Positions 6,801 to 9,800 of a stretch of DNA of 64,000 nt are shown here, piece by piece. The DNA comes from Argopecten irradians (Eukaryota; Mollusca; Bivalvia; Pectinida; Pectinidae). A program made the position numbers and the translations under genes. Each line of letters opens with the position of its first letter. Positions within the stretch are counted from its first letter, which is position 1. The stretch covers positions 58,373,467 through 58,437,466 of the forward strand of contig NC_091134.1 of the NCBI RefSeq assembly GCF_041381155.1. Reading direction: 5' to 3'. The notes beneath the pieces were generated by a model. It had not been told where the DNA came from and searched no databases. It worked only from the letters and a program-made list of their open reading frames with translations.

Positions 6801-9800
6801 TTGTACTTCTGTATGTACTGGTAAATGTTCCCTGCAACGTTTGTACTTCTGTGGGTACTGGTAGATGTTTCCTGTAACGTTTGTACTTTTGTATGTACTG
6901 GTAGATGTTCTCTGTAACGTTTGTACTTCTGTAGGTACTGGTAGATGTTCCCTGTAACGTGTGTACTTCTGTAGGTACTGGTAGATGTTTCCTGTAACCT
7001 GTGTACTTATGTAGGTACTGGTAGGTGCACCCTGTAACGTGTGTTCTTATGTAGGTATTGGTAGATGTTCCCTGTAACCTGTGTACTTCTGTAGGTACTG
7101 GTAGATGTTCTCTGTAACGTTTGTACTTCTGTAGGTACTGGTAGATGTTCCCTGTAACCTGTGTACTTATGTAGGTACTGGTAGATGTTCCATGTAACGT
7201 TTGTACTTCTGTGGGTACTGGTAGATGTTCCATGTAACGTTTGTACTTCTGTGGGTACTGGTAGATGTTCCCTGTAACGTTTGTACTATTGTAGGTACTG
7301 GTAGATGTTCCCTGTAATGTTTGTTCTTCTGTAGGTACTGGTAGATGTTCCCTGTAACGTTTGTACTTCTGTAGGTACTGGTAGATGTTCCCTGTAACGT
7401 TTGTACTTCTGTAGGTACTGGTAGATGTTCCCTGTAACGTTTGTACTTCTGTAGGTACTGGTAGATGTTCCCTGTAACGTTTGTACTTCTGTAGGTACTG
7501 GTAGATGTTCCCTGTAACATTTGTACTTCTGTGGGTACTGGTAGATGTTCACTGTAATGTTTGTACTTCTGTAGGTACTGGTAGATGTTCCCTGTAACGT
7601 TTGTACTTCTGTAGGTACTGGTAGATGTTCCCTGTAATGTTTGTACTTCTGTAGGTACTGGTAGATGTTCCCTGTAACGTTTGTACTTCTGTAGGTACTG
7701 GTAGATGTTCCCTGTAACGTTTGTACTTCTGTAGGTACTGGTAGATGTTCCCTGTAACGTTTGTACTTCTGTAGGTACTGGTAGATGTTCCCTGTAACGT
7801 TTGTACTTCTGTAGGTACTGGTAGATGTTCCCTGTAACGTTTGTACTTCTGTAGGTACTGGTAGATGTTCCCTGTAACGTTTGTACTTCTGTGGGTACTG
7901 GTAGATGTTCACTGTAATGTTTGTACTTCTGTAGGTACTGGTAGATGTTCCCTGTAACGTTTGTACTTCTGTAGGTACTGGTAGATGTTCCCTGTAACGT
8001 TTGTACTTCTGTAGGTACTGGTAGATGTTCCCTGTAATGTTTGTACTTCTGTAGGTACTGGTACTGGTAGATGTGTCACTGTAACGTTTGTACTTCTGTA
8101 GGTACTGGTAGATGTTCCCTGTAATGTTTGTACTTCTGTAGGTACTGGTGATGTTCCCTGTAACGTTTGTACTTCTGTAGGTAATGTACTGGTAGATGTT
8201 CCCTGTAACGTTTGTACTTCTGTAGGTACTGGTAGATGTTCCCTGTAACGTTTGTACTTCTGTAGGTACTGGTAGATGTTCACTGTAATGTTTGTACTTC
8301 TGTAGGTACTGGTAGATGTTCCCTGTAACGTTTGTACTTCTGTAGGTACTGGTAGATGTTCCCTGTAAGTTTACTTTAGTTGTACTTCCTGTGTAGGTAT
8401 GTGATGTTCCCTGTGTTTGTACTTCTAGGTACTGGTGATGTTCCCTGTAACGTTTGTACTTCTGTAGGTACTGGTAGATGTTCCCTGTAACGTTTGTACT
8501 TCTGTAGGTACTGGTAGACTGTTGTACTTCTGTAGGTACTGGTAGATGTTCGCCTGTATACGTTTGTACTTCTGTAGGTACTGGTAGATGTTCCCTGTAA
8601 CGAGTGTTTGTACTTCTGTAGGTACTGGTAGATGTTCCCTGTAAGTTTGTTACTGGTAGATGTTCCTGTAACGTTTGTACTTCTGTAGGTACTGGTAGAT
8701 GTTCCCTGTAACGTTTGTACTTCTGTAGGTACTGGTAGATGTTCCCTGTAATGTTTGTACTTCTGTAGGTACTGGTAGATGTTCCCTGTAATGTTTGTAC
8801 TTCTGTAGGTACTGGTAGATGTTCCCTGTAACGTTTGTACTTCTGTAGGTACTGGTAGATGTTCCCTGTAATGTTTGTACTTCTGTAGGTACTGGTAGAT
8901 GTTCCCTGTAACGTTTGTACTTCTGTAGGTACTGGTAGATGTTCCCTGTAATGTTTGTACTTCTGTAGGTACTGGTAGATGTTCCCTGTAACGTTTGTAC
9001 TTCTGTAGGTACTGTGGTAGATGTTCCCTGTAACGTTTGTACTTCTGTAGGTATGGTAGATGTTCCCTGTAACGTTTGTACTTCTTGTAGGTACTGTAGC
9101 GTTCCCTGTAACGTTTGTACTTCTGTAGGTACTGGTAGATGTTCCCTGTAACGTTTGTACTTCTGTAGGTACTGGTGTAGATGTTCCCTGTAACGTTTGT
9201 ACTTCTGTAGGTACTGGTAGATGTTCCCTGTAACGTTTGTACTTCTGTAGGTACTGGTAGATGTTCCCTGTAACGTTTGTACTTCTGTAGGTACTGGTAG
9301 ATGTTCCATGTAACGTTTGTACTTCTGTAGGTACTGGTAGACGCGCCCTGTAACACGGACAGACATGTCCTTCTGGAGAATGATAATAATCTCTTTAAGA
9401 GCGGTAGGACGGGGGAGAGGTTACAGCTTCCTAACATTCAAAAGGAGCTACTGGTGTAAGTATGTTTTAAGTCATCTATTTTATCATAAAGACCATGGTG
9501 GTTTTTTTTTCCAAAATTAAAATTATTGAGTATTGCATCTCCAAGACTTGTAAAAATGATAATGATTCTGATAACGGAGAATATCACAACTGGTGAACAA
9601 TACTTACTGTCTACCAGTACCATCATCCTTCTCTCTCAAAGTGGATTTGTGATGGTTCTTGTATATAGGTAATTCAACTTTATTTTACGTACTTAGCTAG
9701 CTTTTGTCACTATGTGTTCGAGTGTTGTGTTTATGTACCAAAGCTTAAGTATTATTGAGTGTTAACACTTTTTTTTAAATTTTGATGAAGGACATCTTGT

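What the first reader, a model, noticed from the sequence alone, without database searches (positions are those of the whole stretch)
6801..9330. About 63 tandem decoy 3' splice sites carrying a catalytic motif, directly before the real NSUN4 exon
Seen: the 40-bp unit is 16 nt of intron end (…cttctgtag) plus 24 nt encoding V-L-V-D-V-P-C-N, the catalytic motif IV of NSUN4, and the last unit flows in frame into the true exon. The intron/exon boundary itself has been amplified. Every copy offers an AG acceptor; use of any upstream copy reads into a stop about 20 codons later. Splicing must therefore pick the last of dozens of near-identical sites, or much of the transcript is lost. Copy number changes could tune NSUN4 output, i.e. 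mitochondrial ribosome assembly (inference).
Basis: partly seen in the sequence, partly recalled or inferred. Interest (0 to 1): 0.88.

Follow-up and report, generated by a model that had tools for sequence, protein, structure and literature searches.

The report
Repeated splice-acceptor boundary before NSUN4 exon
A 40-letter piece covering the end of an intron and the start of an exon has been copied about 63 times in front of the real exon of an animal NSUN4 gene; this resembles the 'mirage' repeats known from amphioxus, and whether it disturbs or tunes the gene is untested.

Summary
Window 6801-9316 holds 63 head-to-tail copies of a 40-bp unit; copy 64 is the true 3' splice site plus the first 24 nt of the NSUN4 exon at 9331. 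A match to NSUN4 in the PDB (E 6e-85) runs through the junction 2877/9331. In units 32-63, 15 of 32 carry one-off indels, against 0 of 31 in units 1-31, which suggests sequencing or assembly noise; the true copy number is uncertain.

[quoted passage not shown] I read it as a mirage-type minisatellite of high copy number, probably tolerated by splicing rather than a regulatory device. Regulation by copy number, or stepwise re-splicing down the array (which could keep the frame), is not excluded but has no positive evidence here: no RNA data or relatives were available.

The parts
868..1489 (+). NSUN4 coding exon (earliest one found in the window; start codon not located)
   Evidence: open frame, acceptor ttacag and donor gtaagt; joins in frame; query residues 12-67 match NSUN4
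1844..1975 (+). NSUN4 coding exon
   Evidence: in-frame join; [11 protein letters not shown] aligned to NSUN4
2732..2877 (+). NSUN4 coding exon upstream of the array; donor AACAAG|gtatga
   Evidence: in-frame join; alignment to NSUN4 runs through the junction without a gap there
6801..9316 (+). 63 tandem units of 40 bp: 16 nt intron end + first 24 nt of the exon; 55 of 63 keep an acceptor AG
6801..8040 (+). clean left part, units 1-31: substitutions only, no indels; units 1-14 most diverged
8041..9196 (+). stretch with one-off indels in 15 units; copy number and sequence unreliable here
9317..9330 (+). true intron end (last acceptor, ...acttctgtag), identical to the unit consensus
9331..9455 (+). 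true NSUN4 exon, [12 protein letters not shown]..., donor GGT|gtaagt
10039..10324 (+). last NSUN4 coding exon with stop codon

Best explanation
This is a mirage-type minisatellite. The 3' boundary of the NSUN4 intron (about 16 nt of intron plus 24 nt of exon) was tandemly duplicated, then expanded and homogenised by unequal exchange or slippage to dozens of copies. The array now lies in the intron as mostly tolerated ballast. Splicing most often uses the last copy, because only that copy is directly followed by exon-like, purine-rich sequence and a good 5' splice site 125 nt downstream (exon definition). Shown: the array, its derivation from the boundary, and an intact reading frame across the last copy. 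Inferred: mechanism of expansion, tolerance, and exon definition.
For: The unit is a copy of the boundary: in the real boundary the intron part is identical to the consensus and 21 of 24 exon nt match. Typical minisatellite turnover: units 1-14 carry 34 substitutions, units 15-31 only 9, and variants are shared between units (9 of 25 substitution-only units recur exactly). The exon after the repeated 24 nt is richer in purine-type trimers than the array (0.168 against 0.024 per nt). The NSUN4 frame is intact over the five exons used. Amphioxus precedents have the same geometry, including a 3'-boundary case (BflGb6), and are reported to splice normally.
Against: The amphioxus globin mirage with stated copy numbers has few copies (6 and 3 in the BflGb6 haplotypes), so tolerance of about 63 copies at 40-nt spacing is an extrapolation. 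Each consensus unit looks like a complete 3' splice site: TAAC at -20 to -17, 11 of 16 pyrimidines and a 28-nt AG-free stretch, the same values as the real site (and the sequence). The two nearest decoys would make exons of only 165 and 205 nt. No transcript evidence was available.
Confidence: 0.72

Rival explanations
1. Copy-number rheostat: upstream copies compete with the true acceptor, give transcripts with premature stops, and array length therefore sets NSUN4 output.
For: 55 of 63 upstream copies keep AG; each of the 63 aligned boundaries gives a premature stop if used without further splicing; decoy and true acceptor have equal pyrimidine count, AG-free stretch and TAAC position.
Against: Amphioxus mirages are reported not to interfere with splicing. 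No RNA data. AG-destroying changes are not clearly enriched: 7 of 43 substitutions in units 1-31 (p 0.005 if counted per copy) but 2 of 20 distinct changes (p 0.26). No unusual RNA structure in the one stretch of 5 units folded (z +1.46).
Confidence: 0.12
2. Self-correcting splicing ladder: an upstream copy is used first, which recreates AAG|GTACTG (or offers CTG|GTAGAT or AAC|GTTTGT), and re-splicing continues down the array to the last copy. The product stays in frame: exact, or with VL or VLVDVPCN inserted.
For: Modelled as one hop to the last copy, these three donors keep the native frame and stop in 50 of 50, 43 of 43 and 23 of 23 copies that carry the motif (of 53 boundaries with AG). 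CTG|GTAGAT matches CAGGTAAGT at 6 of 9, like two of the gene's four donors. A potato gene gained an intron after duplication of an intron-exon boundary (abstract of PMC4974935).
Against: The ratchet donor AG|GTACTG matches at only 5 of 9, fewer than all four natural donors found (6, 6, 7, 7). Frame-keeping of the zero-length case follows trivially from the geometry. A fourth donor-like site, CCT|GTAACG, gives premature stops (25 of 25); three further GT sites of the unit (3-5 of 9) were not modelled.
Confidence: 0.07
3. Assembly artefact: a few real copies inflated or corrupted by misassembly.
For: Indels in 15 of 32 units 32-63 and 0 of 31 units 1-31 (Fisher p 7e-6, units treated as independent); none of the 15 indel units recurs exactly, whereas 9 of 25 substitution-only units do (p 0.015). 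One amphioxus mirage appears wrongly assembled in a draft genome.
Against: 31 clean consecutive units with structured, partly shared substitution variants look like a real minisatellite. The artefact reading fits the length and the right half better than it fits the existence of the array.
Confidence: 0.09

Closest known systems
Amphioxus 'mirages' (Adh3, globins BflGb6 and BflGb9, troponin C; PGBD5 likened to them)
   Same: Minisatellite-like tandem duplication of an intron/exon boundary. BflGb6 has exactly the 3' end of the intron plus the 5' part of the exon; many but not all units keep splice signals; edge units escape homogenisation (passages seen).
   Different: 40-bp unit (150-160 bp in BflGb6; 10-72 bp for Adh3 as cited there); 63 copies against 6 and 3 in the BflGb6 haplotypes; a different gene; possibly a different phylum, but the organism was not established.
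Human IFI6 (6-16, G1P3) minisatellite with multiple splice donors (Turri et al. 1995)
   Same: A minisatellite in which repeat units carry splice sites, and two downstream units are used as alternative donors (citing passage in PMC4526556; the original paper is not held).
   Different: Donor sites there, acceptor sites here; alternative use is reported there, none is tested here.
Intron gain by tandem duplication across an intron-exon boundary (potato RdRp gene, PMC4974935)
   Same: Duplicated segment crosses the intron 3' end and the start of the next exon (abstract).
   Different: A tandem duplication that made a new intron; no evidence here of a new intron.

Membership tests
Mirage minisatellites | Tandem repeat units spanning an intron/exon boundary | tested here: met
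   16 nt intron end + 24 nt exon in the unit; last unit is the real boundary
Mirage minisatellites | Many but not all units keep splice signals | tested here: met
   55 of 63 upstream units keep the AG
Mirage minisatellites | Homogenised interior, diverged edge units | tested here: met
   34 substitutions in units 1-14 against 9 in units 15-31; the 3' edge differs at 3 exon positions; the right half is obscured by indels
Mirage minisatellites | Length polymorphism between haplotypes | not testable with these tools
   one sequence only; no genome held
Mirage minisatellites | Normal splicing despite the array | not testable with these tools
   no RNA data; the intact frame across the last copy is compatible
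Mirage minisatellites | Described in lancelets | not tested
   host not established; dispersed repeats and low GC (0.31-0.41) recall bivalves to me, from memory
IFI6-type donor minisatellite | Units carry good 5' splice sites | tested here: inconclusive
   seven GT sites in the unit match CAGGTAAGT at 3-6 of 9, best CTG|GTAGAT 6; four natural donors 6-7
Recursive (zero-length exon) splice sites | Acceptor directly followed by a strong donor | tested here: not met
   AG|GTACTG follows, but with 5 of 9 consensus matches against 6-7 for the four natural donors; a count of matches, not a trained score
NSUN4 (RsmB/F-type m5C methyltransferase) | Sequence match over the catalytic domain | tested here: met
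   NSUN4 chains (4fzv, 4fp9) are the best PDB hits, E 6.1e-85; Pfam PF01189 E 6.6e-27

The most novel reading that the evidence does not exclude
A working ladder of dozens of equivalent acceptors whose copy number sets the productive fraction of NSUN4 mRNA, with mis-spliced products partly rescued by in-frame re-splicing down the ladder, so that a length-variable minisatellite acts as a heritable dial on mitochondrial ribosome assembly.
Probability: 0.07. Interest if true: 0.82.

Novelty: new member of a known kind. Interest (0 to 1): 0.43.

Why it matters
If the copy number holds, it is a natural extreme test of how the spliceosome picks one acceptor among dozens of near-identical ones at 40-nt spacing, with equal branch-site-like and pyrimidine signals. 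It would also suggest that mirage minisatellites are not confined to lancelets, if the host proves to be something else. The second boundary-derived array in the same window, at a ubiquitin hydrolase gene end, hints that such repeats may be frequent in this genome.

Tried and rejected
RNA structure hiding the decoys: one stretch of 5 units (7361-7560) folds no better than shuffles (z +1.46, 189 of 200 shuffles at least as stable). Selection against decoy AGs: the per-copy count is suggestive (7 of 43), the distinct-change count is not (2 of 20). A repeat protein on the minus strand: the consensus unit's reverse complement has no stop in any frame, so long open frames (up to 688 codons between stops; 6 minus-strand ORFs of 100 aa or more overlap 6500-9700) follow mechanically; rejected as a gene for lack of other evidence. 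The array as a dispersed satellite: no copy of the exon piece (up to 3 mismatches) or of the boundary piece (up to 2) elsewhere in the window, and no exact 27-base match in genome contigs or viral contigs, which are bacterial/archaeal and viral collections and so say little. The first gene model had three exon ends off by one; corrected. The translation was in the wrong frame. The branch-site positions printed label the last base of TAAC (-17); its second A is at -18.

Literature: ten searches. Searching 'minisatellite', 'splice sites', 'bivalve' together gave 0 papers; this covers only the held open-licence library. The two original papers on Adh3 and IFI6 are not held; I know them only from citing passages. 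Recalled, from no call: branch-site and 5' splice-site consensus, motif IV naming, that 4fzv and 4fp9 are human, and the bivalve impression.

Full report
What is there. TRF finds one array at 6801-9354 with period 40 and 64.0 copies. A cyclic alignment to the consensus TTGTACTTCTGTAGGTACTGGTAGATGTTCCCTGTAACGT splits it into 63 units (6801-9316) plus unit 64, which is the real intron end and exon start (9317-9354). The 24-nt exon piece occurs 54 times with up to 3 mismatches, all on the plus strand and in the array, against none in 100 shuffles. Neither it nor the boundary piece (up to 2 mismatches) occurs elsewhere in the window.

The gene. Five exons (868-1489, 1844-1975, 2732-2877, 9331-9455, 10039-10324) join into an open frame of 436 codons followed by a stop. 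The start codon was not located. The best PDB matches are NSUN4 chains (4fzv, 4fp9; E 6.1e-85), in two stretches (query 12-67 and 182-432). The second runs through the junction 2877/9331 (...[17 protein letters not shown]... against ...YDR|VLVDVPCTTDRH...) with no gap at the junction; a 3-residue gap lies about ten residues before it. Pfam gives PF01189, RsmB/F methyltransferase. So the exon that follows the array is the one that joins exon 2732-2877, as far as homology can tell.

The decoys. Of 63 upstream units, 53 have AG exactly at the aligned boundary. Units 32 and 35 have it a few bases upstream, because an insertion follows it. Units 1, 2, 3, 11, 12, 19 and 28 lost it by substitution, and unit 47 lacks it. 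Taken as acceptor without further splicing, each of the 63 aligned boundaries leads to a stop 2 to 60 codons after the junction, most often 20; only the last boundary reaches the native stop. The consensus unit has the same pyrimidine count (11 of 16), the same AG-free stretch (28 nt) and the same TAAC at -20 to -17 as the real site; the gene's other four acceptors have 9, 13, 11 and 12 of 16 pyrimidines. From the second copy on, this TAAC is the Cys-Asn end of the previous copy's exon piece, so a piece of coding sequence would serve as branch-site candidate for the next copy (inference).

Is use of a decoy fatal? Not necessarily. The exon piece is 24 nt, eight codons, and the 16-nt joining sequence begins with GT and ends with AG. 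Modelled re-splicing in one hop to the last copy keeps the frame from AG|GTACTG (50 of 50 carriers among 53 AG-bearing boundaries), CTG|GTAGAT (43 of 43) and AAC|GTTTGT (23 of 23); from CCT|GTAACG it gives a stop (25 of 25); with no re-splicing, all 53 give a stop. These four sites match the consensus CAGGTAAGT at 5, 6, 5 and 5 of 9, three further GT sites of the unit at 3-5, and the gene's four donors at 6, 6, 7 and 7. This is a possibility, not evidence of use.

Why the last copy may win. The 101 exon bases after the repeated 24 nt are richer in purine-type trimers (0.168 per nt) than the array (0.024); the other four exons lie at 0.083-0.154. The donor GGT|gtaagt lies 125 nt downstream of the true acceptor. 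This fits exon definition, but the two nearest decoys would make exons of 165 and 205 nt, so the point is not settled.

How sound is the sequence? Units 1-31 contain 43 substitutions and no indel; among units 32-63, 15 of 32 carry indels, with 11 substitutions (Fisher p 7e-6; units are not independent). None of the 15 indel units recurs exactly, while 9 of 25 substitution-only units do (p 0.015). In a homogenising array real variants tend to be copied, so I read the one-off indels at 8041-9196 as probable sequencing or assembly noise (inference). The array is probably real; its exact length is not known.

Evolution. Units 1-14 hold 34 substitutions, units 15-31 hold 9, the usual pattern of tandem-repeat turnover. 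The real exon differs from the array consensus at 3 of 24 nt, so DAPC stands in the exon where the consensus unit has DVPC. Which state is older is unknown.

What is known. [quoted passage not shown] The Adh3 data and globin RT-PCR are said to suggest no interference with regular splicing; the authors also note that one BflGb6 mirage appears wrongly assembled in the draft genome (passages of PMC3087553). PMC3902484 adds PGBD5 and troponin C, and says that the Adh and TnC mirages do not generate aberrant mRNAs (passage). A human interferon gene, IFI6, has a minisatellite with splice donors, two downstream units being used (citing passage in PMC4526556). A potato gene gained an intron after a duplication across an intron-exon boundary (abstract of PMC4974935). 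The original Adh3 and IFI6 papers were not available.

Verdict. A new member of the mirage kind, with many more copies than the globin example. Its host is not established (no genome held); the dispersed repeats look bivalve to me from memory. Regulation by copy number and ladder-like re-splicing remain open but have no positive evidence.

Noticed in passing
23985-24341 (minus strand): Five 72-bp tandem units, the first being the gene's own end, that repeat the C-terminal coding end, stop codon and following bases of a ubiquitin hydrolase gene (UCH domain, E 1.3e-12): a second array derived from a gene boundary in the same window.
   Followed up: partly
3305-4506, 5329-5622, 6388-6781: Arrays of about 155-160-bp units within the same NSUN4 intron, perhaps cores of dispersed mobile elements; the last one ends about 20 bp before the NSUN4 array begins.
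   Followed up: no
5620-6390: A segment that seems to interrupt the 155-160-bp repeats, with a stretch that looks by eye and from memory like a BED-type zinc finger of a hAT element; the one family search that included it did not run.
   Followed up: no
6801-9354 (minus strand): The reverse complement of the consensus unit has no stop codon in any frame, giving open frames up to 688 codons between stops; probably meaningless, but gene finders may call it.
   Followed up: partly
8041-9196: One-off indels confined to the right half of the array (15 of the 32 units 32-63), pointing to a poorly assembled stretch.
   Followed up: partly
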